Positions 2,330-51,945 of a stretch of DNA of 64,000 nt are shown here, in pieces (positions within the stretch are counted from its first letter, which is position 1; every line of letters starts with the position of its first letter). This stretch comes from Cordylochernes scorpioides. Lineage: Eukaryota; Arthropoda; Arachnida; Pseudoscorpiones; Chernetidae. Made by a program: the position numbers and the translations under genes. The notes beneath the pieces are model-generated. The model was not told where the DNA came from. It saw only the letters and a program-made list of their open reading frames with translations, and made no database searches. The stretch lies in the NCBI GenBank assembly GCA_030710605.1, contig CP092865.1, positions 144,073,081 through 144,137,080 on the forward strand, written 5' to 3'.

Positions 2330-2500
2330 CAAGGGCAAACAGCGTGCGTGGTTAGCTTTTCTTGATTTATCAAGAGAAAGGATATTTGACCAATATTCTA
2401 AATAATCATTAAAAATCAATCATTATAGTTGATATTTATTCCGAAAGATGGAGTAAGCCATCAGTAAATTTCAGTTGCATTATAACAATAGATTCCTTTT
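2330..2500 (+). mobile_element. Decayed hammerhead-family repeat
   Basis: GGGCAAACAGCGTGCGTGGT, then TAGCTTTTCTTGATTTATCA, TTGATATTTATTCCGAAAGA and TGGAGTAAGCCATCAG reproduce the unit order, with the ribozyme core degraded. Confidence 0.6.
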
Positions 2501-2530
2501 ATTAATAGCAGATATTGCCCAATTTGAAAT

Positions 2531-5520: not shown

Positions 5521-5984
5521 CACATGGTACAGGCCATGATAACCATAGTAGGTAGATAGTGACTGCTTTTACTGTAAGAGCACCACATGGCTACACATGT
5601 GAAAAGCAATTTTTTAATATACACACAAATGGCGATAAAAAAATTAAGATAAATATTGAATAAAGCATTAATAATAGACGACTTTTAAAAGAAACTTACC
5701 GGCCTTTGCCGGTCCCAAGCCCGGATAAAAAAGGAGGAGGGGGAGCAGTAACAAGCCCACTAAAAAACCTGGGCTCGGCTGGCCCGGCTGATAGTACCCT
5801 GTAAGGGCTCCTAATCCAGGGATACAGTATGAGCAGTGTTTGTACTCCATGTTAGGAGCGGCTACACATGGTGTCTGTTCTTCATGTCAGAGGCGGCCAT
5901 TTCTTTTGGAGCTAAGTCAGCCTGCCACTGAGTAGTGCTCCTAGTCTTAATGACAACGGCAGACGCATTCTACTTCACCCAGTC

Positions 5985-6257: not shown

Positions 6258-7364
6258 ATACTGATACAAGGGATTATTTTAACCTATTTTCTTTTAAAAC
6301 ATATAAATCACACTCTTTTTCCATTGTTATGTCAAATATCAAAAGTAATTTAAGAATTAATTGTTTTAAATTTAATAGATAATGTGCATGAAGGCATCAT
6401 TGGATAGTGGGCTACCTAGACCGAAGTCTGTACGCCTGAATGCTTGAAGGCAATGCATATGAAGAGGTCTAAAAAAAAGGCAACATTATAAAAGCTATAA
6501 GAATTTTTTTTAAAGAGGTTAAAATATCAATACGCCATTAATCAAATTATTAGGAAAAAATCTCCAAAGTTATCTATACTGAATTTATTCTGTGAAGACT
6601 TCTGGGCGAAAATTAATTTGCATTTTAAAAAATGATCGTTTGGTTTTTGTGAGCAATGGCAGTCTTCCATCTTTGATTAAACCAGAAGTTTCGTTATTTT
6701 ATTGCTTCTCAACCTTGAGATGTGTATCATCATTTCTCGTTCTCTTATTTTATTATATTTTGTAGAGGATGGGGATTTTTAAAATGGGTATTTAATAGAG
6801 AAAGAAAAAATCAGCACCTATGATGAACTCATTTGGAAATATTCATTCATAGTATTGGTACCGCGCGTTCAATAAGTTCTTTAATAAAGGTATTGACCAA
6901 TTTACATATTTACATATATGCTATTTGCATCATTTCAATTAGCCTATATCTATATATATATATAATAAAAATGCAAATATTTTATTCTCTAAAACATATA
7001 TTTTATTTTCATTCATTGAATGTTCTACATTTTTTAATATAGATTTAGAACATAATATTTTGAATATTTTTGTAAATATGTATAGTTAATCTACCTATTT
7101 TTTTTTAATTCACGAATATAAAATTCATTTTATAAATTCTATATTACTATGAAAAATAATTTTATATGTAATTTGCTTCAAGTAATTCAAAATAAAAACT
7201 ACTTGATGGGTAAATAATTATCTTTCCTATTTTCACGACTGCACCTTCAATTCTCTATCTTTTTCAACAACAAAACAAAATATTCATAACATATATATGT
7301 TTATATATATTTAAAATAGTACAATTTAGTAGAATTTAGTAGAATTTGTACTTGGATCACGTTG
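6258..7364. other. AT-rich intergenic sequence
   Basis: No gene seen. Contains the lone inverted 60-bp satellite fragment at 6405-6434 and TA-rich runs around 6.93-7.15 kb and 7.29 kb. Confidence 0.4.
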
Positions 7365-7530
7365 ATTATTTAAGAAAAAAGGCATTTCCTGATTGTGCAA
7401 CTTGATTAATCAAGAAACAGTATTTGGCCAATTCTGGAATAATTAAAAATCTACGATTAGTTGATATTTATTCTGATAGATGGCGCAAGCCATCAGAAAC
7501 TTTTAGTTTCAAGATCTGGATATGCCTTTT
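7365..7530 (+). mobile_element. Hammerhead-family repeat, body only
   Basis: TTGATTAATCAAGAAACAGT, TTGGCCAATTCTGGAATAAT, TTGATATTTATTCTGATAGA and TGGCGCAAGCCATCAG match the 32.4-32.85 kb unit. The ribozyme end is missing. Confidence 0.6.
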
Positions 7531-7623
7531 TCTTAATTTGTATATATATTAGGAGAAACCCTTGATCCATCCATATATAAAACTATATAAATGCCTGAGA
7601 ACTATGTATAATTCATTATTGTA

Positions 7624-9042
7624 CACTGCGTGACATTGAAAATGGAACACCAAGAAATAGTGGCCAGAAAGTGATGAAACTCGGCAGACAGAGAGAGACA
7701 GGGACGAACAATAAGTGATCTTTATTTCAAAATGATAGTCATAATACAGAGCGAGAACGGCGTCGGCTTAGTAGCAAGTAGGACCACCGCGGACGGCGAT
7801 GCACGCAGCAACACGTCTAGGTAGAGAGTCAATCAGAGTACGGATGGCGTCCTGAGGGATGGCTCTCCATTCCCTCTCAACCATTTGCCACAGTTCGTCT
7901 TCTGAACGCGGCTGTGGCAAGGCATGCAAACGGCGTCCAATGATGTCCCAGACGTGCTCGATTGGTGAGAGATCAGGAGAGTACGGTGGCCAGGGAAGCA
8001 TCTGTACATCTTGCAGAGCTTGTTGGCTAATGCGAGCAGTGTGCGGTCGGGCGTTATCCTGCTGATAAAGGGCATTGGGTACCCCCTGAAGGTAGGGGAG
8101 TGTCACCGGTCGCAGCACATCATCAACGTATCGTTGGGCCGTCATAGTGCCCTGAATACGAAGTAAAGGTGACCTGGAATCATACGCGATTGCGCCCCAA
8201 ACCATGATTCCACGTTGTCGCACGGTGGGGCGTTCCACAATTGCTGCCGGATTGGACCTTTCTCCACGTCGACGCCACACGCGTACACGGCGACTATCAC
8301 TGGACAAGCAGAAATGCGACTCATCTGAGAACACGACCCTGTGCCATTCCGTCATCCACGTCGATCTAGCCCGGCACCATTCCAAACGTTGGCGCCTATT
8401 CGGTGGGGTCAATGGCAGTCTTCTTAGCGGACGGCATGAGTGCAAGCCATTAGCAACCAATCGACGGGAAATGGTTCTGGTCGAGATGGAATGATCTAGG
8501 GTGTCTTGCACATGCTGCAGGATGGCGGTACAAGTGGCTTGTGGGGCCGCCACTGCTTGTCGAAGGATACGACGATCCACACGTGCTGACGTCACTCTGG
8601 TTGCACCGACATTCCTATAAATTGCCACATTTCCTTGTTCCAACCATCTTCTCCACAGTCGGTGCACCGTGGACGCACCAAGGTGTGTATCAGCTGCGAT
8701 TTGACGTATGGACCAACCTGCCCTTTTCAGTCCGATCACCATGCCCCTCGTAAAAGCGTCTGTCTGCTTGAACTGCCTCCGTTTACGATGACCTGGCATT
8801 CTCTGTTATTACACGTGTCTTTTGACACAAGAACAAAATTTCTACAATGATTTTCCTTGAAGAAATAACGACACGAATACTGTCCTTTCTGCAAGTTCCT
8901 TCCCTTATATCTTACTCCATGTGCGCACGAGAGCTGCGCATTTTACATCATTTGCATAACTCGGTTAGGCGCGTCTACCCTGAAATTTGCATAATTTTCT
9001 GGCCACTATTTCTTGGTGTTCCATTTTCAATGTCACGCAGTG
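7624..9042 (-). mobile_element. Complete Tc1/mariner transposon with 47-bp perfect inverted repeats
   Basis: The left end (7624-7670) and right end (8996-9042) are exact inverted complements over 47 bp, beginning CACTGCGTGACATTG. A TA dinucleotide flanks each side (7622-7623 and 9043-9044), the normal Tc1/mariner target duplication. The 1419-bp element carries one uninterrupted transposase gene on the minus strand. Perfect terminal repeats plus an intact frame indicate a recent insertion that could still be mobile (inference). Confidence 0.95.
7768..8799 (-). CDS. Tc1-family DDE transposase, 343 aa, apparently intact
   Basis: Cut-and-paste transposase acting on the flanking 47-bp inverted repeats. 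Residues about 1-60 form a helix-turn-helix DNA-binding domain (GWSIRQIAADTHLGASTVHR), and a second Tc1-type binding domain extends to about 125. The catalytic domain has D159 (FSDESHF), D248 (QQDNARPHTA) and E281 (SPDLSPIEHVWD). By my count 32 residues separate the second D and the E, not the 34 of classical Tc1 (DD34E), because the loop before LPWPPYSPDL is two residues shorter. The C-terminus has the LPRRVAACIA box common in arthropod Tc1 elements. The length matches the family. The start is the first ATG of the frame, with no upstream competitor carrying homology. No stop or frameshift is visible. The dead copy at 55.7-56.7 kb keeps the same short spacing. Confidence 0.95.
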   Translation of the reverse strand: MPGHRKRRQFKQTDAFTRGMVIGLKRAGWSIRQIAADTHLGASTVHRLWRRWLEQGNVAIYRNVGATRVTSARVDRRILRQAVAAPQATCTAILQHVQDTLDHSISTRTISRRLVANGLHSCRPLRRLPLTPPNRRQRLEWCRARSTWMTEWHRVVFSDESHFCLSSDSRRVRVWRRRGERSNPAAIVERPTVRQRGIMVWGAIAYDSRSPLLRIQGTMTAQRYVDDVLRPVTLPYLQGVPNALYQQDNARPHTARISQQALQDVQMLPWPPYSPDLSPIEHVWDIIGRRLHALPQPRSEDELWQMVEREWRAIPQDAIRTLIDSLPRRVAACIAVRGGPTCY

Positions 9043-23476: not shown

Positions 23477-24133
23477 TGTAACAAAGTATTTATTATTTTA
23501 TTAGCAGAGTATTATTTTTTATGTTTATATTTTGCTATACTCTGTACACTTCCCTCTTTTGCTTATCTTTTGTTTATCACTCATAGCTTGTTCCTTCCGG
23601 CCTAACCTGCCTCTTCCCTAAAGGAGATCCTGTCCCTAGCCTCTCCAGCCTGGTCATAGTGGTTTTATATATTCCGCTTTACGCGGCCATTGGGGCTCAA
23701 AAATCATTTTATTTTAGTTAGCAGCCCCGTAAATAAAGGTATTTCCATAGTTTGTTCTTTATAATGCACTGCGGCCTGTGATTATAAAACGACACTTGAA
23801 GTTTCACCGCATGAGTTTCTTTTCTGTGAAAAATCAACATTTATTTCAAGGAGAAATATTGAATATTTCTAACCTTTTTGGATGAAGTATGAAAAGGTGA
23901 AATATGAAGAGTATTATTTTTCCGTTCGTCATTACTCTTCATATTTCACCCTTTCATACTTCATCCAAAAAAGGTTAGACATATTAAATATTTCTCCTTG
24001 AAATAAATGTTGATTTTTCACAGAAAAGAAACTCATGCGGTGAAACTTCAAGTGTCGTTTTATAGTTTGTTCTTGCCTGAAATAAATTGTTATCTGATCC
24101 CGAAGTTGGTCTTCCCTAATTTTCCTCGTGACA
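23477..24133. mobile_element. LTR-like repeat (TGTAAC...TGACA) with nested foldback
   Basis: Begins TGTAACAAAGTATTTATTAT and ends CCTAATTTTCCTCGTGACA, flanked by ATAT on both sides. Related shorter copies lie at 6086-6257 and about 17905-18094, each with an ATAT-like flank. TG...CA ends and a 4-bp duplication fit a solo LTR, but no internal retrotransposon genes were seen. An inverted second copy of the right end starts at 24138. Confidence 0.5.
23760..24074. mobile_element. Foldback element, arms about 137 bp
   Basis: Arms 23783-23919 and 23930-24064 are near-perfect inverted complements around CCGTTCGTC. ATAGTTTGTTCTT occurs at 23747-23759 and 24062-24074 and is probably the target duplication. 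The left end keeps ATAATGCACTGCGGCCTGTG, which the right end has lost. Arms match the ends of the larger element at 43.9-45.8 kb. Confidence 0.8.
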
Positions 24134-24179: not shown

Positions 24180-24345
24180 AGGCAACAGTCCGACACGTAT
24201 ACGTGGCTAATTTTTCTCGATTTATCAGGAAAAATATATATCGGTCAATATTCTGGGATAGAACTTAACTTTTAGTTGATATTTATTCCTATAGATGGCG
24301 TATTACATCAGAAATGTTCAATTTCACGATGATTCTGTACTTTTT
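24180..24345 (+). mobile_element. Decayed hammerhead-family repeat
   Basis: GCAACAGTCCGACACGTATA then CGTGGCTAATTTTTCTCGAT preserves one stem I arm and part of stem II. The body boxes (TTGATATTTATTCCTATAGA, TGGCG) follow. Confidence 0.58.
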
Positions 24346-24599
24346 CGTAATTTGACCATCACGATCTTATGCATTCTTTTTCCCACCGAAGTAATGTATT
24401 ACAAAAAAACATACAAACACACATTGTAAACGTCACAGATTACTGCAATATTTATTCTTTAGGGCCAATTATTGGAAAATAAAAGTAAATTTGAAAATAA
24501 AACCCCTCATTGACCTATTTTCTTTGTTCTTATCATTAGTTCCTGGGGGGGGGGGATGGAGAAAGTGGGGAAATTTCTGCCATTATATTGGTTCTACAC

Positions 24600-26838: not shown

Positions 26839-27252
26839 TATTTAGAAACTATTCAACAGAATTTGTACTTACAAAGATTTTAGAAAGCTTAAATAATAAA
26901 AATTGTAAAGGGTAAGCATGCTTCATCAGTAATGAACACGTACTGAGGTTTCTCCAGTTTAAACTCCAGATGATCTACTTTTGTATTGGGTATATCAATG
27001 GTATAAAACCGAAAGTTTGTCCCAATACCTCCTCCTCCTTTGGAACGGCAAATATTGTGGACGTGTTATTTACACAGGTCATTGCGGCTTCTGGGTCAAT
27101 TGTCGTTATTTCAACTTTGAGAGCTGCAAGATTATAGCGTTTTATCGAAAACAATGAGAATATAAACAATTTGTAATTGTTTCTCTCTTTTTTCATTCCA
27201 CTCCTTTTCTATATCTCTCAGGAGAATATGTATAAAAGACTAAAGGTCTTAA

Positions 27253-28781
27253 ACCACTTTCCCCACTGCTATTTATATTATTTATCACGGACTTAATCGA
27301 AATTTATAATAACTCAGACCTGCCGAGTGTAAATTTGCCAGAATTTGGAGATATCCATTTATTGCTGTACGCCGACGACATAGCAATTATAGGTGAGTCC
27401 AGGATAAACCTCCAAAAGAAGATCAAAATACTGAAAGAATATCTCGATGAGAACTTAATGACACTAAATGAGTCCAAGTCAAAGATTATGGTGTTCCGTA
27501 ATGGAGGTAAACCCTCAAATAAGGATAGATGGTTCTGGAATGATAAACCCATAGCAATAACTTCAAGATATACATACTTGGGATTCCCTCTGACACCAAC
27601 AATAACAACTACTCACCCGGCAAATTACTTTAAAGGAAAAGCACTTACAGCAATTAACGCCACACACCCAATATTAATTAAATCAAAAGCAAAGTCAATA
27701 AATTTATCAATCAAACTCTTTGATACAATAGTGAGAGCTGTCCTGATGTATGCCGCTCCATTATGGGCAACAGAGCATAAAGACTTACTGGACAATATAC
27801 AAGACATATTTATCCGTAGGTTCCTGAATCTGCCCAGATACACTCCAGGTTACCTAATCAGATTAGAAACCGGTCGTATCTCATTGAGTGTAACAGCCTT
27901 AAATTTAACCCTGAAGTATTGGCTGCGGGTGTTGAATATGAGCAGTGACAGATTGCCACGTATATGTTTTAATAGAACACGGGAACTCTCTAATGCTTCG
28001 GGCACACCCATCGGTTTCATTAAAAAGCTCACTAATCTGCTTAACGATAATGGATCCCCTGCACTTGTTTCCTGTGATGACCCTGAAACGCTGAGGAGCG
28101 CGATTACAGGGCTCTTAAAAACAGCGGCAGACCAATCTATACAAAACGACCTTACAAGAATGGATAAATCTAAGCTATACTCTCACTACAAAGACATTCA
28201 CATATCTTTCATGACGGAGGGATACCTTTTAGGGGATTTTCCTTTCCCGGTTGTAAGACTACTCGCACAAGTTAGAATACTTTCAAGTTTTTTTAGAGAA
28301 AACCACACCAAGATGCTCTGCGGTGAGGACCCGACTTGTACCTTCTGTAATTCAAAACTACAAAATGAAATCACTCACTATATTTTTGATTGCTCTGCTC
28401 TGAAAGAAGAAAGAAGAACCCTTATGCTCAAAACTGGGCAACTCTGTGCTTCACTTCCATCAATAATTGACAATATGACCCAGAATAAGTATATTGCTAC
28501 GGCGTTTTATGGTTTCCACAAGTCCATATCTCAGAAGAAGGCCAAGTGATACTCACTCCTCACTTTCTTACTGCTACTCTTTTTGTGTTGATTTCTTGCT
28601 TCCCTCTTTCTTATTATTATTTTTTTTTCCCCTTTTCTTGTTTTTTTTTTTTCTTTCTCTTTTTACTCTGTATATATCGCTATTTCCGTTGTCTCACTGC
28701 TTTGTTCTTATGCATACCTCTGGTGAATCCTGTATAGGGTCAGTGACCCTAAATAAAGGCTTTTTTGTTGTTGTTGTTGTT
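27253..28781 (+). mobile_element. 5'-truncated non-LTR retrotransposon with 15-bp target duplication
   Basis: The element is bounded by an exact 15-bp direct repeat, GACTAAAGGTCTTAA, at 27238-27252 and 28782-28796. It carries the C-terminal part of a reverse transcriptase ORF, a T-rich 3' UTR, a terminal hairpin (GGGTCAGTGACCC, 28737-28749), AATAAA and a (GTT)n tail ending at 28781. The target is the 3'-terminal hairpin of an older related element, whose tail resumes at 28782. It lacks the 5' half of the polymerase, so it is a dead-on-arrival copy. Confidence 0.92.
27254..28549 (+). pseudogene. Non-LTR reverse transcriptase, C-terminal fragment
   Basis: The frame opens inside palm motif PLSPLLFILF, then reaches the catalytic LYADDIAIIG motif about 33 codons in. 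The thumb region (YTYLGFPLTP, AVLMYAAPLW) follows. The C-terminal tail holds a cysteine-histidine motif (CTFCNSKLQNEITHYIFDC) typical of Jockey/R1-like polymerases. The frame is continuous to TGA. Fingers, the first catalytic motif and the endonuclease are absent because of 5' truncation at the insertion site, so no working enzyme is expected. The clade is not resolved; a Jockey/CR1/R1-like group is likely. Confidence 0.92.
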
Positions 28782-29200: not shown

Positions 29201-29388
29201 ATTATGAAAAAGGCATCTCCTTATCGTGCAACTGAAGGTTGCTAATGACTTGCGCCATCTATCGGAATAAATATCAACTATTCTCGTTTATTTTTAATTA
29301 TTCGAGAATTGGCCAAATACCCATTCTTAATTAATCAAGAAAAGCTAACCACTTCAGTTGCACGATAAGGAGATGCCTTTTTCATAAT
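29201..29388. mobile_element. 188-bp palindromic repeat (CTCCTTATCG hammerhead subfamily), 36-bp perfect ends
   Basis: Left 29201-29236 and right 29353-29388 are exact inverted complements beginning ATTATGAAAAAGGCATCTCC. The interior keeps GGAATAAATATCAACTA, CGAGAATTGGCCAAATACCC and TTAATTAATCAAGAAAAGCT, blocks of the ribozyme-bearing family. It could equally be called a MITE. Confidence 0.7.
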
Positions 29389-29885
29389 TTATGCACCTTA
29401 TCCCAGTACAATATCACATTTGTACTATTTTTTCACATAATATTTATTGTTGGTAATAAAATCATTTTGTGGCTCTTTGAAAAATTGAAATTTTGTAAAT
29501 TGTAATTTTTGATTCTTCCGACTCAAAAGATTGCCGACTCCTGATCTAAGCAGATATGATTCACTCACATTACTGAAAGAAACATGCCGCAGATGGTACA
29601 ATTCGGATGACACTGGTTGTAAATATTGGATAATCTAGATATACAAACCGCTGTAGATAACTATTCAATGTAAATTTAGGAACTAGGAGATTCTTGGTGA
29701 GCGGCGCACCTAGTAAAGCTTTGCGCAGAGGCGATATCGTAGCCCATGAGGATCTTCCGAGGCGCGATACTTTATTGCTAGTTGAAAACTTTACCCTAGT
29801 AAAGTTGATTTGAACTGGACCTTGTTGTGAAAACAAAACCGTCACTGTGCTGGTTAGTTATGATGAGGGTCATAGTCCGAAGTCA

Positions 29886-30300
29886 TCAACAACCAAAATC
29901 TTTATTAAGACCTTTTAGTCCTTTACAGATTCTCCAAGCGGAAATGTAGGGTATATGTAGGAATAACACTAATAGTACCAGTAATTAGCAATGTACAACA
30001 ACAAAAAGTTTTATTAAGACCTTTTAGTCTTATATAGATTCTCCAAGCAGAAACGTAGGGTATATGTAGGAATAATTCTAATACTACCAGTAATCAGCAA
30101 TGTACAACAACAAAAAGTTTTATTAAGACCTTTTAGTCTTATACAGATTCTACAAGCAGAAATTGTAGGATATATGTAGGAATAACACTAATAGTACCAG
30201 TAATCAGCAATGTACAACAACAAAAGGTTAAATTAAGACCTTTTAGTCTTGTACAGATTCTCCAAGCAGAAATGTAGGATACATACAGGAAAAACAGTAA
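29886..30300 (-). repeat. Tandem array of a non-LTR 3' end, four copies of about 108 bp
   Basis: Units start at about 29889, 29995, 30104 and 30214. Each consists of the (GTT)n tail, AATAAA, the hairpin (AAGAC and GTCTT arms) and about 60 bp of 3' UTR. All are truncated at nearly the same point and head-to-tail. Uniform truncation favours duplication of one insertion over repeated independent insertions. Confidence 0.85.
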
Positions 30301-30600
30301 TAGTATTTTAACGGTAATATGATATTTATATACAGGAAAAATTATATAAAGACAATCAAGCTAATAGATTAGTCTGGGTAAATTGGAGGAAAAGAAATTT
30401 ATTATACATGGATTTACCACGGATTCTCTGCAAATAAAGATAAAAAAAAAGTAAAAGCTAATCACAACCAATATTGAGATAATGAAATTTATATACAAGA
30501 AAATCTAATTAAGACAATTGAGCTCATAAACAGATTTGTAAGGGTAAATCCGAGGATAAGAAAAAAAGATACAAACATAATCCGAAGTCATGGTATACAG
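30300..30600. repeat. Two-copy degenerate duplication, about 170 bp
   Basis: TTTATATACAGGAAAAATTA and TTTATATACAAGAAAATCTA begin two related segments containing AAGACAAT, GCTAATAGATT or GCTCATAAACAG, and GGGTAAAT. It may be the extended UTR of the non-LTR array to its left. No gene is seen. Confidence 0.5.
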
Positions 30601-30699: not shown

Positions 30700-30850
30700 A
30701 TGTAACTTAAGAAAAAGGCATCTCCTTATCGTACAAATGAAAGTTGCTGATAGAAAATTTCAGTTACACAATAAGGAAATGTCTTTTTCTTAATGTATCC
30801 ACCTTATACCAGTACAATTTCACTTTTGTGCTATTTTTTCACAAAATGTA
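30700..30850. mobile_element. Short palindromic remnant of the hammerhead family
   Basis: AAGAAAAAGGCATCTCCTTA and the inverted ATAAGGAAATGTCTTTTTCT lie about 45 bp apart, joined by GTTGCTGATAG. The right flank has the family sequence TCCACCTTATACCAGTACAA. Confidence 0.55.
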
Positions 30851-32149: not shown

Positions 32150-32416
32150 GCGATTGAGAGGCTCAGCAGGGTTCAGCAAATTTGGACCAAAGTTCAGTCA
32201 GACAATATCTCGTGTTGTCCACATTTTGGCCAACTCCTAAATACTATCCTAACCACAGTAAAACCACAGTCTTCTAGGAATAACTATAAAGGAATGGCAA
32301 TACATCCAGATGGCACAAGAACCAACAGGACATGTAACAATTGTCCTGGTGTGGAACTAACACCTACCCACATATTCTCATGTCCAGAAATGACCGCAGC
32401 CTCGCAGAAAATTGAA
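32150..32416 (+). pseudogene. Non-LTR polymerase C-terminal fragment (EMYGDI family)
   Basis: The frame includes NNYKGMAIHPDGTRTNRTCN, then NCPGVELTPTHIFSCPEMTA and ASQKI, a C-x2-C...H...C knuckle typical of arthropod non-LTR polymerase ends. At QKI it is interrupted by the hammerhead element at 32417-32851. The rest of the coding end (QKIDMDPEQ..., ending MYGDI) resumes at 32852. The left limit of homology is approximate. Confidence 0.8.
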
Positions 32417-32851
32417 GTTCTGGAATAATTGAAAATCAACGATTAATTGATATTTATTATTATAGATGGCTCAAGCCATCAGTAACATTTTAGTTACACG
32501 ATGAGGAAATGCCCCTTTTTCTCAATTTATCCACCAGGCCAAAGTACAAATTCACTTTTGTACTATTTTTCACATTGATTGACGTTCACACGCCCTTCCG
32601 GCCTAAATTCCTGTCTCAAGATACCCCAAAGACCACCTTTTTGGTCGTTGAGATACAGCTTGCACCACGTTGACGAGGGCCAACAGCCCGAAACGCGTAC
32701 GTGGTTAGCTTTTCTTGATTAATCAGGAAACGGTATTTGGCCAATTCTGGAATAATTAAAAATCAACGATTAGTTGATATTTATTCCTATAGATGACGCA
32801 ATCCATCAGCAACTTTTAGTTGTACGATCAGGAAATTCCCCTTTTTTTTTA
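32417..32851 (+). mobile_element. Hammerhead-ribozyme repeat (retrozyme/Penelope-type), 326-bp direct tandem
   Basis: The segment splits a non-LTR polymerase and is flanked by AGAAAATTGA (about 32407-32416 and 32852-32861). It contains a truncated first copy and a second copy of the same unit: TTCTGGAATAATT recurs at 32419 and 32745, a 326-bp period. The hammerhead-like core (32665-32704) starts the second copy. Each copy has a GATGGC/GCCATC dyad and ends near CCCCTTTTT. Tandem units with type I hammerheads, the upstream one truncated, are the layout reported for animal retrozymes and Penelope-like LTRs (family knowledge). No reverse transcriptase is present, so mobilisation would be in trans. 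Confidence 0.72.
32665..32704 (+). ncRNA. Type I hammerhead ribozyme, probably inactive (C3 changed)
   Basis: Stem I arms CCACG and CGTGG enclose TTGACGA, a GGGC/GCCC stem II with loop CAACA, GAAAC and a GTA cleavage triplet. It differs from the canonical core only in having T where C3 should be. The copy at 46.28 kb has C there and a compensated stem II. Confidence 0.7.
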
Positions 32852-33577
32852 AAGAAAATTGACATGGACCCAGAGCAGAAGCTTTACACACCCAAGATAG
32901 AGGACATTGCTACTGCTGTGATAGAGATGTATGGAGACATCTGAGGCTCTTCATTGGAGACGACAACAACAACAGAAAATTGACATGGACCCAGAGCAGA
33001 AGCTTTACACACCCAAGATAGAGGACATTGCTACTGATGTGATAGAGATGTATGGATACATCTGAGGCTCTTCATTGAACACGACAACAACAACAGAAAA
33101 TTGACATGGACCCAGAGCAGAAGCTTTACACACCCAAGATCCCAAGATAGAGGACATTGCTACTGATGTGATAGAGATGTATGGAGACATCTGAGGCTCT
33201 TCATTGAACACGACAACAACAACAGAAAATTGACATGGATCCAGAGCAGCAGCTTTACACACATAAGATAGAGGACATTGCTGTGATAGAGATGCATGGA
33301 GACATCTGAGGCTCTTCATTGGACACTACAACAACAACAGAAAATTGACATGGACCTAGAACAGCAGCTTTACACACATAAGATAGAGGACATTGCTGTG
33401 ATAGAGATGTATGGAGACATCTGAGGCTCTTCATTGGACACGACAACAACACAACAGAAAATTGACATGGAATCAGAACAGCAGCTTTACACACATAAGA
33501 TAGAGGACATTGCTGTGATAGAGATGTATGGAGACATCTGAGGCTCTTCATTGGACACGACAACAACAACAACAACA
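32852..33577 (+). repeat. Six-unit tandem array of a non-LTR 3' end (115-129 bp units)
   Basis: Units begin at 32852, 32974, 33095, 33224, 33339 and 33456 with AGAAAATTGACATGGA. Each encodes the last about 30 residues of the polymerase (IDMDPEQ, LYTPKIEDIA, AVIEMYGDI, stop), then GGCTCTTCATTGGACACGAC and (CAA)n. The array is the direct continuation of the polymerase fragment at 32.15-32.42 kb, so one inserted element has had its 3' end multiplied. Long minus-strand frames across it are artefacts of the repeat. Confidence 0.88.
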
Positions 33578-33939: not shown

Positions 33940-34120
33940 TTCATGCATTAAATAGATGAGGGCCAACAGCCCGACACACGTTCGTGGTTAGCCAAATATC
34001 AAGGAACAGGTTAAATCATCGTTTAGTTAATTTCTGTTCCACTAGATGGCGCTCTTCCATCTTAAAACGATCATGTTAGTGGTCACGATATGCCTAATCT
34101 ACTTATATATTTGCCTTATT
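33940..34120 (+). mobile_element. Decayed hammerhead repeat, GGAGCACATG subfamily
   Basis: GAGGGCCAACAGCCCGACAC followed by GTTCGTGGTTAGCC keeps stem II and one stem I arm, but GAAAC has become GACAC and the other arm is gone. The downstream blocks (TTTCTGTTCCACTAGATGGC, GATATGCC) are intact. Confidence 0.65.
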
Positions 34121-34173: not shown

Positions 34174-34243
34174 CCATCGGTGGTTCAGTGGTAGAATGCT
34201 CGCCTCCACGCGGGCAGCCCGGGTTCGATTCCCGGCCGATGCA
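34174..34243 (+). tRNA. tRNA-Gly(GCC)-like gene with a 6-nt anticodon loop, probably a pseudogene
   Basis: D arm, T arm (GGGTTCGATTCCC) and acceptor (ATCGG/CCGAT) fold as in animal tRNA-Gly(GCC), and box A and box B look intact. Compared with the usual 71-nt gene one base is missing from the anticodon loop (CTCCAC where CTGCCAC is expected), and the first acceptor pair is C opposite C. A T run of twelve follows, a strong Pol III stop. It may be a recent retropseudogene or the head of a SINE. Confidence 0.75.
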
Positions 34244-34943: not shown

Positions 34944-34961
34944 ATATAATAGCCTTGCAGA
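34944..34961. other. Short AT spacer between Helitron-like end and non-LTR 3' end
   Basis: Only ATATAATAGCCTT-type sequence; the place where two unrelated insertions abut. Confidence 0.3.
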
Positions 34962-35083
34962 AAATTGACATGAATCCAGAGCAGCAGCTTTACACACCCA
35001 AGATGGTGGACATTGCTGCTGCTGTGATAGAGATGTATGGAAACATCTGAGGCTATTCATTGGACACGACAACAACAACACAT
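34962..35083 (+). mobile_element. Solo non-LTR 3' end (EMYGDI family)
   Basis: A single copy of the unit repeated at 32.85-33.58 kb: CAGAAAATTGACATGAATCC, coding end, TGA, UTR and (CAA)n tail. It lies just downstream of the Helitron-like terminus at 34938. Confidence 0.8.
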
Positions 35084-36486: not shown

Positions 36487-36539
36487 AGTTTGAATAGGTA
36501 GTGCAACGGCACCCATTTTCCAATGAAAAGCAAATGCCC

Positions 36540-36797
36540 AGCAATGGCCACAGCCTTTCAGAAAAATGACATAGACCCAGAACAGCAGCTTTACACACCC
36601 AAGATAGTAGACATTGCTACTGCTGTGATAGAGATGTATGGATACATCTGAGGCTCTTCATTGAACACAACAACAGAAAATTGACATAGACCCAGAGCAG
36701 CAGCTTTACACACCCAAGTTAGAGGACATTGCTGCTGCTGTGATAGAGATGCACGGAGATATCTGAGGCTCTTCATTGGACACGACAACAACAATAG
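36540..36797 (+). repeat. Two-unit tandem of the EMYGDI-family non-LTR 3' end
   Basis: Two head-to-tail copies, the first extending slightly further 5' (GCCACAGCCTTTCAGAAAAA). Both end in (CAA)n after GGACACGAC or GAACACAAC. It is a second, independent case of duplication of this terminus. Confidence 0.82.
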
Positions 36798-46119: not shown

Positions 46120-46400
46120 AATATTAAAAATAAAAAAGGCATATCCTGACTAGGAGCACATGTGCTTTACGGAAGGCAGAGCGCCATCTGGTGGAACAGA
46201 AATAAACTATTCATTGATTTAGCCTGTTCCCTGATATTTGGCCCACCCAATTTCTTGATAAATCAAGAAAAGCCATCCACGAACGCGTTTCGCGCTGTTG
46301 GCGCTCGTCAGCGTGGAGTAGTCTGTACCACTGAGACCAAAAAGATTTTTGATCCCAGTGGCTTCTTGAGAAATCAAGAAATGGGTATTTAAAGCCAAAC
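46120..46400 (-). mobile_element. Hammerhead repeat, GGAGCACATG subfamily
   Basis: Minus strand order: hammerhead, a TTTCTTGATTTATCAAGAAA dyad, TTGGGCCAAATATCAGGGAA-like sequence (one base differs here), TTCTGTTCCA, GATGGCGCTCTGCC, CACATGTGCTCC, GGATATGCCTTTTTT. It is the diverged counterpart, block by block, of the 32.4-32.85 kb unit, including the GATGGC box and the T-run end. Confidence 0.7.
46277..46316 (-). ncRNA. Type I hammerhead ribozyme with complete canonical core
   Basis: Minus strand: stem I arms CCACG and CGTGG pair over 5 bp. The core CTGACGA and GAAA are exact. Stem II is GCGC/GCGC with loop CAACA. A minimal stem III (A-U and C-G pairs) precedes a GUU triplet, so cleavage is predicted between 46282 and 46281. 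Relative to the 32.67 kb copy, stem II changed from GGGC/GCCC to GCGC/GCGC with pairing kept. Very short stem III is typical of animal retrozyme and Penelope hammerheads, which often act as dimers (family knowledge). Confidence 0.75.
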
Positions 46401-46884
46401 TTGCGTAAGTATAGAAATATGCATGAAAGAATAATATTCTTAAGTTTTTAATTCAGGCTTCTTCTGTTTTAAAGAACCAGGAGGATATTTGTATAAGACG
46501 CATATCTTTCAAATTAAAAAAAAAATTAAACTCAAGAAAAGTTTTGTATTTGTGTTCATTTTTAGATTTAGTTTATCCGTTGATGTATTAGCTTGATATA
46601 TTACAGCGCATCAATTGGAAAAAAAAATCTAATTATGGATCTTAATTTGAGAAAAAAAATGTTAATGTGAATTTTTAACTTTATTTTTTTACCTGGTTTT
46701 ATTTTGAAACTCTTACTGATAAATTTTAAAGACTCAAATTGAGTTTAAGAACAGGATTATGGACTCCTGACTTTTTCTAACTTCGAACAATCACTTACAG
46801 ATAAATAGAACCAGTATATACTCGTATTTTAACAATTCTTTAAATTTCTTGAAATTAAAGATGTATGAAAAGTGAAATTTGTAT

Positions 46885-47879: not shown

Positions 47880-48050
47880 TTGACTTGACTTACGTTGATT
47901 TATCAAGAAAATGGGTTTGGCCAAATATCAGGGAACAGGTTAAATCAATGTTTAGTTGATTTCTGTTCTACTAGATGGCGCTCTGCCATCTAAAAAAAAA
48001 CACATGTGTTTTTGGTCAGGATATGCTTTCATTATTTTTAATACGTATAC
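47880..48050 (+). mobile_element. Hammerhead-family repeat, 3' portion
   Basis: GATTTATCAAGAAAATGGGT, GGCCAAATATCAGGGAACAG, TCTGTTCTACTAGATGGCGC and GATATGCTTTCATTATTTTT match the body of the 46.1-46.4 kb unit in the opposite orientation. The ribozyme end is not recognisable. Confidence 0.65.
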
Positions 48051-48059
48051 TCTGTGGGA

Positions 48060-48782
48060 GCAATTAACAACAGAATGTCTATTTATACAAGAGACGTGCC
48101 AGAAGAATATAAAAAATATTTGATAAAGAAGATAAACCTATTGTGAATTAGTAGTTTTATCATATTTATTTCGTTATTGACTCATTTAATGTATTTTAAA
48201 AATAGTTTTAACTTTTAAATTTTAATTGAAAAATAAATGAATATCTTCACATCCTTTTTATATTTTATTTCCAAAGTCTCGGCGACCCGCTGTTGCCCTT
48301 TTTAAGGAAAACTGTATTTGCTATTGTTTACTTTTTGATATTTAGTGACTGAAATCGGTTATATTGAATTTTGGTTTATCTCACGACGTGTTTTATTAAA
48401 ACATTTTTAAAATATTACTCGTTTTAGAGAGATAATTTAAAATATTTTATTTGTATATAAACCGCTGGGAGGGTTCACCACTGATGACCCCAGACCAGAC
48501 TATGACCCTCCCATTATTTTATCAATGCAGTAAGGGCAGTATAAATTGTTTGATTTCAAAAAGAAGTATACGCGTCTAAAATAGTTTATATTTCTTATAT
48601 ACATTTGTGTTTTCTATTACTTTGCATATTTTTCTGATGACTTTGAATGTACACAATCTCGGCCTAGTAAGTTTTACCTTGATAAATGGCAACAATGGGT
48701 CGTCTAGGCATTGGTGAACAAATTCTACCTCACATAGCATCAGCTGTAACTTTAGATTTCGAACAGAGAGACTAACACGAAG
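48060..48782. other. Sequence upstream of the USH1G-like exon, presumed intron
   Basis: Holds a fragment of the GGGAGGGTTC MITE family (48460-48545). No further ankyrin coding was seen. Confidence 0.45.
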
Positions 48783-48794
48783 TTGTGTTTGCAG
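48783..48794 (+). promoter_or_regulatory. 3' splice acceptor of the USH1G-like terminal exon
   Basis: A short T-rich tract ending in TTTGCAG immediately precedes the point where ankyrin homology begins. In-frame conservation starts one base after the AG, so the intron splits a codon after its second base. The open frame does continue upstream into AT-rich sequence, but without ankyrin similarity, which supports splicing here. Confidence 0.75.
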
Positions 48795-49632
48795 GGGTGA
48801 TCCTGACCGCTGCGACAACTTCGGCAACACAGCGCTCCACTGGGCTGCAGCCCGAGGCCATATTAACTGTGTTTCCTTCCTGGTCAACTTCGGAGCCAAT
48901 CTCTGGGCACTGGACAACGAATACCACTCGGCCAAAGACGTAGCGGCCGTTCATCGTAGAGAAGAAGTGCTGCGCTACCTAGACGACTGCATCGCCACGC
49001 AGAGCGCCACTCGGCGCAAGCAGGTCGCACGCCTCAAGGAGAAAGCTGTCAAAGATGTCGAGAAACGTCTGAAAATCATCAACAAGCTTCAAAACAAAGC
49101 TTTGAAGAGAGCAGAGAAAGAGACCCTGGAGATGTCGGAGAACGTAAAAAACAGGTGTCATATTGTACTAAGTGCAAAGGATTCCCAGAAGTATTCGGAG
49201 ATCGTGAACGATGGCTATAAGAAATGTGGGATACAGGTACAACAGTCCAGGCGGACCGTACAGCCGGTATCCCTCAGACGTCCGTTACAGGATCTCTTCG
49301 ATAAACAGAGCATAGATGTCCCGGACTCGGGGATCGGCGAGGAGAGTCTGCAGCCGGAGGATAGCATCGGTAGCGCGGGTAGCCTGGCCCGTCGTAGCCG
49401 CTCGGGGTCCGCCCCACCCGTGGCACGGTTCCTAGCCTCCCAGGGCCTGCTGGAGTACGTAGCGGTCTTCCTGAGGGAGAAGATCGACCTCGACGCGCTG
49501 ACCCTCCTCACTGAGACAGACCTACGAGACCTCGGCCTTCCACTGGGTCCGCGCCGTAAGCTGGGCCGAGCGCTTGAGCTACGCAAGGCTGCAATCGCCG
49601 ATCCAGGCTGCGTGCTCGATTCCCGTCTGTAG
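48795..49632 (+). CDS. USH1G: USH1G/Sans-like ankyrin-SAM scaffold protein, terminal coding exon
   Basis: The open frame encodes 278 residues and a TAG stop at 49630-49632. It starts after a 3' splice site (pyrimidine tract then AG at 48793-48794), so the first base completes a split codon. Residues 1-22 (GDPDRCDNFGNTALHWAAAR) and the following 30 are ankyrin repeat. A basic, charged, helical stretch (about 65-110) follows, then a short variable region with a RRPLQDLF box. A SAM domain (about 209-268, with EKIDLDALTLL and PLGPRRK) comes next, and the protein ends DSRL. This is the order of vertebrate USH1G (SANS) and ANKS4B: ankyrin, central region, SAM, PDZ-binding tail. In that family the protein scaffolds harmonin and myosin VII complexes in stereocilia or microvilli (known for the family). 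SRL fits a class I PDZ ligand. The central region is much shorter than in mammals. Upstream exons with the first ankyrin repeats were not found by eye and may lie outside the window. The exon is GC-rich against AT-rich flanks, as expected of the only host coding sequence seen here. Confidence 0.9.
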
Positions 49633-51239: not shown

Positions 51240-51395
51240 GTTTAAGAAAAAATAAAGGGCATCTCCTTATCGTACAACTGATACAAATACTCTTTGGAAT
51301 AAATATCAATTATTCGTTGATTTTTTTATTATTCCAGAATTGGCCAAATACCCATTCTTGATAAATAAAAAAAAAAGCTTACCGCGTACGCGTTT
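51240..51395 (-). mobile_element. Hammerhead-family repeat (CTCCTTATCG subfamily)
   Basis: GGGCATCTCCTTATCGTACA, GGAATAAATATCAATTATTC, CCAGAATTGGCCAAATACCC and TCTTGATAAAT follow the minus-strand order of the 32.4-32.85 kb unit. It ends at TTACCGCGTACGCG, where the ribozyme's stem I would begin; the core itself is gone. Confidence 0.62.
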
Positions 51396-51689
51396 TTCAC
51401 ATTATTTCATGTTTGTTTATATATTAAAAAAAAAAAGTGTAAGAAATAAATATATTGGGTTTTTCATATTTACAAATATTAATTTTAATTTACTATCTAA
51501 AATGGCATGCTTATTTTCTATTTTAAAAAACGAATAAAAGGGACATTTATTGAATTATGTACTAATATTACTATAAATTTAATAATTTGAAATTTATCTA
51601 TATGTTTATTTATACATTAAAATGGAGAGAAATCGGTATATATATAAATATCTTTTGAAATTGGTATAAATATAAATTTATTATGCATA

Positions 51690-51945
51690 TAAATATATTA
51701 AAATCAAAAAAGGCATATCCTGACCAGGAGCACATGAGATTTTTAGATGGCAAAGCGCCATAGAGTGGAACAGAAATCAAGAAAATGTATGTTTTATTAA
51801 GAAAATGGGTTGGCCAAATATCAGAGAACAGACTAAATCAACGTTTAGTTGATTTCTGTTCCACTAGATGACGCTCTGCCATCTAAAAAACTCATGTGCT
51901 CGTGATCAAGTTATACCTTTTTTGATTTTAATACCAATACCTGAC
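51690..51945. mobile_element. Inverted-repeat form of the GGAGCACATG hammerhead family
   Basis: The two ends are diverged inverted copies of about 80 bp, sharing AAAAAAGG, GAGCACATGAG, TTTTTAGATGGCA, AGCG and CAT and GTGGAACAGAAATCAA. The centre holds the GGCCAAATATCAGAGAACAG block. Two units in inverted orientation look like a MITE, but the blocks match ribozyme-bearing repeats. Penelope-type elements are known to form such inverted terminal copies. Confidence 0.6.

What the first reader, a model, noticed from the sequence alone, without database searches (positions are those of the whole stretch)
32417..32851. Retrozyme-like insertion: tandem hammerhead unit with its own target duplication
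Seen directly: a 326-bp direct repeat (first copy truncated) carrying a hammerhead-type core, inserted in a non-LTR polymerase and flanked by a 10-bp direct repeat AGAAAATTGA. Known: animal retrozymes and Penelope-like LTRs are short tandem units with type I hammerheads. Inference: this family moves by copying a circular or multimeric RNA with a partner's reverse transcriptase. The block order is shared with at least nine other repeats in the window, so the family is abundant.
Basis: partly seen in the sequence, partly recalled or inferred. Interest (0 to 1): 0.88.

Follow-up and report, generated by a model that had tools for sequence, protein, structure and literature searches.

The report
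Penelope-type hammerhead repeat inside a retrotransposon
A short mobile repeat with a degraded self-cutting RNA motif jumped into another jumping gene; its ends carry the marks of the Penelope class of retroelements, so it is a good example of something already known.

Summary
A 437-bp insert (32416-32852) interrupts the last coding stretch of a non-LTR retrotransposon, flanked by a perfect 10-bp duplication (AGAAAATTGA). Two paralogues in the window have the site uninterrupted. Inside, a 103-bp block recurs at 326-327 bp, with one hammerhead core at 32664-32705. That core has U for C3 and is probably inactive. A second copy (46317-46276, minus) has the complete core; two double compensatory changes relate the two. 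A hammerhead descriptor finds only these two sites in 64 kb and none in 100 shuffled windows. Rfam finds no hammerhead above its curated threshold.

The window holds 11 loci; 6 have 9-14 bp duplications. Their copied ends fall in two zones about 49 nt apart; the three bounded inverted loci use one zone at each end. This resembles the pseudo-LTR, tail and inverted-copy anatomy published for Penelope-like elements. Only 1 of 11 loci is tandem, and it has one hammerhead, so it could not release a unit circle by itself. Best reading: an ORF-less Penelope-type element moved in trans. A retrozyme-style RNA circle is possible but untested.

The parts
32416..32852 (+). the insert: 5'-truncated unit followed by the rest of one further unit, 437 bp
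32406..32415 (.). left copy of 10-bp target duplication AGAAAATTGA
32853..32862 (.). right copy of 10-bp target duplication AGAAAATTGA
32418..32520 (+). block A (post-hammerhead part of the unit, first copy)
32745..32847 (+). block B (same part, second copy), 90 of 103 aligned positions identical to A
32664..32705 (+). hammerhead-like core: stem I ACCACG/CGUGGU, UUGACGA (C3->U), stem II GGGC/GCCC, GAA, ACGCGU; predicted cut after 32699
32516..32520 (+). site 1 (T run after CCCC) in copy A; in copy B the run begins at 32842 and the insert ends 11 bases past the CC
32543..32574 (+). tail hairpin AGTACAA/TTGTACT (32543-32564) and site 2 (GTACTATTTTTCACA from 32560)
46125..46409 (-). monomeric copy (285 bp), duplication ATATTTCTATA (46420-46410, 46124-46114); complete hammerhead core at 46317-46276, predicted cut after 46282
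51244..51402 (-). copy starting inside the hammerhead core, duplication AAACATGAAATA
29204..29434 (-). inverted-plus-direct copy, duplication AATAAATATTATGT; left end at site 2, right end at site 1
7312..7540 (+). inverted-plus-direct copy, duplication TATATATATT (simple sequence); left end at site 2, right end at site 1
30709..30845 (+). inverted-plus-direct copy, duplication ATGTAACTT; left end at site 1, right end at site 2
51704..51925 (+). inverted-plus-direct copy of second subfamily, no clear duplication
2333..2502 (+). family copy with decayed core, no clear duplication
24188..24348 (+). family copy with decayed core, no clear duplication
33955..34101 (+). second-subfamily copy with decayed core, no clear duplication
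47889..48035 (+). second-subfamily copy whose match does not reach the hammerhead, no clear duplication
34951..35068 (+). paralogous non-LTR end with the insertion site empty, 108 of 118 identical to the joined flanks
36534..36663 (+). paralogous non-LTR end with the insertion site empty, 117 of 130 identical to the joined flanks

Best explanation
The insert is one copy of an ORF-less Penelope-type pseudo-LTR (pLTR) family. The unit is about 327 nt: a leader of roughly 100 nt, a near-minimal type I hammerhead, about 142 nt of hairpin-rich RNA up to site 1, and a tail hairpin up to site 2 about 49 nt further on. A Penelope-like reverse transcriptase/GIY-YIG endonuclease encoded elsewhere would cut AT-rich DNA and start copying inside the RNA at site 1 or site 2. 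Where only one DNA end is extended, a direct copy with a variable 5' end results; where both are extended, an inverted-plus-direct copy results. The duplication comes from the staggered cut. The partial tandem here would come from a multimeric template or a template jump. Shown by sequence: insertion, duplication, empty site, end zones, inverted copies, hammerhead pairing. Inferred: the partner enzyme, priming of both DNA ends, and any hammerhead cleavage in the cell.
For: Empty site and continuous frame. Six loci with 9-14 bp duplications. In those six loci I count nine RNA-templated ends: six lie 8-14 bases past the CC of site 1, three lie 6-13 bases past the GTNCT of site 2, and each of the three inverted loci has one of each. 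Published Penelope features that match: two adjacent internal RT starts that bound the 'tail', both DNA strands cut and extended, AT-rich targets (PMC11167929, parts 1-2 of 4 read); inverted pLTR next to a direct pLTR, optional 31-bp tail on one of them, 8-10 bp duplications, solo pLTRs, pLTRs enough for movement in trans (PMC3846280, passages). Near-minimal helix III as said of Penelope hammerheads (PMC7761336, passages). Compensatory changes in hammerhead stems I and II and in the hairpin before site 1 (two pairs, U-A to C-G and A-U to G-C, in 4 of 10 sequences each).
Against: No Penelope coding sequence in any of 105 ORFs of 75 aa or more, so the partner is not seen; shorter or decayed pieces would be missed. 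Five of 11 loci have no clear duplication, and duplications of 9-10 bp are weak on length alone (9 and 2 of 110 in the flank swap). The ends scatter over 7-8 bases. In the Anolis element copying starts in an AC-rich stem-loop inside the ORF, not at T runs, and start sites did not differ between strands. Its hammerhead was not needed for insertion in vitro. RNAalifold finds no consensus structure on the 11-copy alignment; the hairpin's number of co-varying pairs does not beat shuffles (481 of 500 as high), though cells with double change (8 of 500) and covariation score (13 of 500) do. The two-sequence hammerhead test has no power against shuffles (137 of 500). The tail is about 49 nt against the published 30-40. 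The partial tandem in a non-LTR element in PMC3846280 had no duplication.
Confidence: 0.78

Rival explanations
1. A true animal non-LTR retrozyme: multimeric transcripts are cut by two hammerheads, ligated to about 327-nt circles, and the circle is reverse transcribed, giving tandem DNA copies. (Overlaps the best explanation, since a Penelope enzyme could copy the circle.)
For: Unit size, GC below 50% (37.8%), partial tandem, long duplications and a type I hammerhead fit the published description (PMC7229834, abstract and sections 13, 14, 17); those authors name Penelope enzymes as likely movers.
Against: Only 1 of 11 loci is tandem, and in this window no locus was found with two hammerheads. 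Helix III is near minimal as in Penelope hammerheads. The two half copies share 1 derived state, while A32 and c51m share 2. The 46 kb copy is a monomer whose ends are not at the cut site.
Confidence: 0.25
2. Solo pLTR fragments of a full-length autonomous Penelope element, 5'-truncated or deleted, with no independent life as a short element. (Overlaps the best explanation.)
For: Most loci match only the part downstream of or around the hammerhead; Penelope elements leave solo pLTRs (PMC3846280 passages).
Against: The tandem at 32416-32852 has a whole 327-bp period, too short for a Penelope ORF (830-842 aa in the passages of PMC3846280), with the tail running on into the next leader; the 46 kb insert is 285 bp between duplications.
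Confidence: 0.3
3. Inverted copies arise by self-priming on an antisense template, as the authors of PMC3846280 propose, rather than by priming at both DNA ends.
For: Proposed there for Penelope inverted copies with palindromes at the junction (passage).
Against: In the three bounded inverted loci the two outer ends fall in the two RT-start zones, one each, which both-end priming explains directly; three loci are few, and junction palindromes were not tested.
Confidence: 0.25
4. A DNA transposon (MITE) with terminal inverted repeats.
For: Four loci have inverted parts.
Against: In the other seven no significant inverted part was found; duplication length varies from 9 to 14; in the three bounded inverted loci the two ends are different points of the unit.
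Confidence: 0.03

Closest known systems
Penelope-like element pseudo-LTRs with tail and minimal hammerhead (Poseidon of Anolis; Penelope of Adineta vaga and Drosophila virilis)
   Same: hammerhead in the repeat, two RT-start zones that bound a tail, direct-plus-inverted copies, short duplications in AT-rich DNA, partial tandem, insertion in a non-LTR element
   Different: no ORF in the unit; tail about 49 nt instead of 30-40; starts at T runs, not in an AC-rich stem-loop; helix III slightly longer than the bare minimum (recalled)
Animal non-LTR retrozymes (Acropora, Mytilus, axolotl)
   Same: non-coding unit within 170-400 nt, type I hammerhead, GC below 50%, long duplications
   Different: mostly single partial copies here, not multimers; near-minimal hammerhead; circular RNA not shown
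Plant LTR retrozymes
   Same: hammerhead-bearing non-autonomous retroelement with direct repeats
   Different: those have type III hammerheads, PBS/PPT, LTRs of about 350 bp and 4-bp duplications; here type I and 9-14 bp duplications

Membership tests
Penelope-like element (pLTR derivative) | telomerase-like RT with GIY-YIG endonuclease, in the element or in trans | tested here: inconclusive
   not in the element; 105 of 105 ORFs (>=75 aa) scanned, the only RT domain is in ORF 27236-28546, which I read as non-LTR; host genome not held
Penelope-like element (pLTR derivative) | RT-start ends at two adjacent internal sites (tail) | tested here: met
   nine of nine ends in six duplication-bounded loci fall in the two zones, with 7-8 bases of scatter; zones defined from the same loci
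Penelope-like element (pLTR derivative) | inverted pLTR next to a direct one | tested here: met
   4 of 11 loci
Penelope-like element (pLTR derivative) | short target duplications in AT-rich DNA | tested here: met
   6 of 11 loci, 9-14 bp; 58 of 66 duplicated bases are A/T; 5 of 11 loci without
Penelope-like element (pLTR derivative) | minimal type I hammerhead in the repeat | tested here: met
   descriptor hits at 32665-32704 and 46316-46277; only the second has the complete core
animal non-LTR retrozyme | tandem units each carrying a hammerhead | tested here: not met
   1 of 11 loci tandem, with one hammerhead; the rest of the genome could not be searched
animal non-LTR retrozyme | unit expressed as circular RNA | not testable with these tools
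   no RNA-seq
hammerhead ribozyme (Rfam clan CL00010) | covariance-model score at or above the curated threshold | tested here: not met
   best 22.9 bits vs 52 (RF02275, 46262-46327 minus; E 5e-4 in 101 nt, 0.33 in the window); none at 32.6 kb
hammerhead ribozyme (Rfam clan CL00010) | invariant core CUGANGA...GAA, A15.1-U16.1, H17 and three helices | tested here: met
   met at 46317-46276 (helix III near minimal); at 32664-32705 C3 is U; core rules recalled, role of C3 and G8 also in PMC11167929

The most novel reading that the evidence does not exclude
An ORF-less Penelope element reduced to leader, hammerhead, hairpins and tail (about 327 nt) that spreads as an independent short element: a link between Penelope pLTRs and animal retrozymes. 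Its inverted copies record priming of both DNA ends by one RNA-protein complex, one end started at site 1 and the other at site 2.
Probability: 0.35. Interest if true: 0.6.

Novelty: new member of a known kind. Interest (0 to 1): 0.38.

Why it matters
Which enzyme moves animal hammerhead repeats is open in the papers read here; Penelope enzymes are named as a strong candidate. Here the end structure of natural copies points to Penelope-type priming in an ORF-less hammerhead family. The pattern that each bounded inverted copy has one site 1 end and one site 2 end (3 of 3) can be tested on any genome that holds this family.

Tried and rejected
MITE/DNA transposon: rejected on variable duplication length and unequal ends. 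Rfam: whole window at gathering threshold and at E<=10, and four shorter stretches: no hammerhead above threshold. RNAalifold on 11 copies: no structure. Dimer energy of the two cores against 300 shuffles each: not significant (46 kb core 89 of 300 as low, 32 kb core 28 of 300). The 32 kb dimer fold resembles the expected double-hammerhead pairing; the 46 kb one does not, probably because its stem II is self-complementary. Relatives elsewhere: 0 hits for two hammerhead patterns and one body pattern in viral contigs, 0 for one pattern in genome contigs, no match in plasmids; none of these collections is of animals, so this says little. Penelope coding sequence: none in 105 of 105 ORFs of 75 aa or more. 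Same-circle test of the half copies: uninformative. Paper searches: hammerhead ribozyme with spider and retrozyme, or with Penelope and spider: 0 papers. Non-autonomous Penelope or solo pLTR: 2 papers, of which PMC3846280 was seen in passages and PMC6685494 in the listing only. Two cited papers on Penelope hammerheads (PMC4209133, PMC5785218) are not held and were not read. The host was guessed to be an arthropod from its mobile elements; no call establishes it.

Full report
What was checked. The window is 64 kb, 35.5% GC. It holds a U4 snRNA and a tRNA match, a Tc1-type transposase and an RT frame, so I take it for a eukaryote, by guess an arthropod. No whole genome is held for it. The insert at 32416-32852 is flanked by AGAAAATTGA at 32406-32415 and 32853-32862. 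The left flank is an open frame that I read as the 3' end of a non-LTR polymerase from its cysteine/histidine pattern (recalled; Pfam gave no significant family for this ORF). With one duplication kept, the joined flanks read straight on to a stop, and paralogues at 34951-35068 and 36534-36663 cross the site without an insert. AGAAAATTGA also begins the units of the downstream 115-bp array, so the duplication alone could be suspected to be array sequence; the two paralogues and the frame speak against this.

Anatomy. Blocks A and B (32418-32520, 32745-32847) agree at 90 of 103 positions, spacing 326-327. Between them lie the tail hairpin (32543-32564), site 2, a leader of about 100 nt (110 nt from site 2 to hammerhead position 3) and the hammerhead core. 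Because the first copy begins downstream of the hammerhead, the insert contains one core. Self-cleavage could therefore not release a unit-length monomer from this copy alone, even if it were active.

The hammerhead. The core at 32664-32705 has stem I (6 bp), stem II (4 bp), GAA, the self-complementary ACGCGU and H17=A, but U at C3. The copy at 46317-46276 (minus) has C3 and H17=U. Between the two, stem I pair 6 changes A-U to U-A and stem II pair 2 changes G-C to C-G; all 12 pairs form in both, against 21-42% of cells when partners are slid. With two sequences the shuffle control has no power (137 of 500). The descriptor finds just these two sites and none in 100 shuffles. Rfam gives RF02275 at 22.9 bits for the second (E 5e-4 in 101 nt, 0.33 in the window) and nothing for the first. 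In four further loci whose sequence reaches the core region (2.3, 24.2, 34.0, 51.4 kb) the core is decayed or cut off. So 1 of the 6 loci that reach the core has it complete, and the reported copy is probably inactive.

The family. BLAST finds 11 loci; nhmmer seeded with ten of them recovers all 11 and no further one below its inclusion threshold. There are two subfamilies by my reading of the alignments. Six loci have exact duplications of 14, 12, 11, 10, 10 and 9 bp. Swapped flanks reach 9 or more in 9 of 110 and 11 or more in 0 of 110, so the three longest are strong on length, and the others rest also on lying at the element edge; the one at 7.4 kb is simple TA sequence. The other five have no clear duplication. 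I trimmed the nhmmer seeds near site 1, so only the six bounded loci say where the ends are.

Ends. Direct copies end at site 1 (32.4, 46.3, 51.4 kb). Inverted-plus-direct copies have site 2 on the left and site 1 on the right (7.4, 29.3 kb) or the reverse (30.7 kb). That is nine ends: six lie 8-14 bases past the CC of site 1 and three 6-13 bases past the GTNCT of site 2. The 5' ends of the direct copies differ: downstream of the hammerhead (32.4 kb), 92 nt upstream of it (46.3 kb), inside its core (51.4 kb). Variable 5' ends with fixed 3' zones are what target-primed copying gives. The hairpin between the sites is formed in three of the four copies that reach it, as aligned. Before site 1 there is a longer hairpin with two double changes, each in 4 of 10 sequences. 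There the paired-cell percentage is 90% against 29-52% for slid versions; cells with double change and the covariation score exceed most shuffles (8 and 13 of 500 as high), but the number of co-varying pairs does not (481 of 500), and RNAalifold on all 11 copies finds nothing.

Comparison with print. PMC11167929 (parts 1 and 2 of 4 read) shows that a Penelope protein starts copying at two adjacent sites inside its RNA, that these bound the known 'tail', that both DNA strands are cut and extended, and that targets are AT-rich. It also shows an AC-rich stem-loop as start region, no difference of start between strands, and a hammerhead that is not needed for insertion in vitro; none of these three supports my picture. 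PMC3846280 (passages) describes direct plus inverted pLTRs, a 31-bp tail on one of them, 8-10 bp duplications, solo pLTRs, movement in trans, and a partial tandem inside a non-LTR element, the last without a duplication; its authors explain inverted copies by self-priming on antisense RNA. PMC7761336 (passages) says Penelope hammerheads are minimal in helix III. PMC7229834 (abstract, sections 13, 14, 17) describes animal retrozymes as repeats expressed as circular RNA and proposes Penelope enzymes as movers. PMC4918200 was seen in passages. The present family matches the Penelope set in most features except the missing ORF, and the retrozyme set in size and lack of coding sequence but not in tandem hammerheads.

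Verdict. The better name is a Penelope-type, ORF-less pLTR element with a mostly decayed hammerhead. That it works like a retrozyme through circles is possible and untested. It is a good specimen of a known kind; its best new point, one end of each kind in inverted copies, rests on three loci.

Noticed in passing
window 5688-5742 (+): Twister-P1 ribozyme-like site, RF03160 at 31.3 bits (gathering 67.2; E 0.0085 in the window, 2e-5 in 151 nt); the core matches, but the outer stem P1 does not pair in the alignment.
   Followed up: partly
window 32853-33571 and 36559-36790 (+): Tandem arrays (period 115) made of the 3' coding end of a non-LTR element, units starting at or near AGAAAATTGA.
   Followed up: partly
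window 29717-29802 (+): U4 spliceosomal RNA match above threshold, with a 109-bp tandem array just downstream (29887-30305).
   Followed up: no
window 34174-34243 (+): tRNA match above threshold followed by a T run, soon after a copy of the family at 33955-34101.
   Followed up: no
window 23863-23985: Region that matches plant microRNA families on both strands below threshold; probably an inverted repeat.
   Followed up: no
window 7771-8805 (-): Open Tc1-type transposase frame of 345 aa (PF01498, PF13358) next to a family copy.
   Followed up: no
window 48718-49629 (+): Open frame with ankyrin repeats and a SAM domain, perhaps an exon of a USH1G/SANS-like host gene (name recalled).
   Followed up: no
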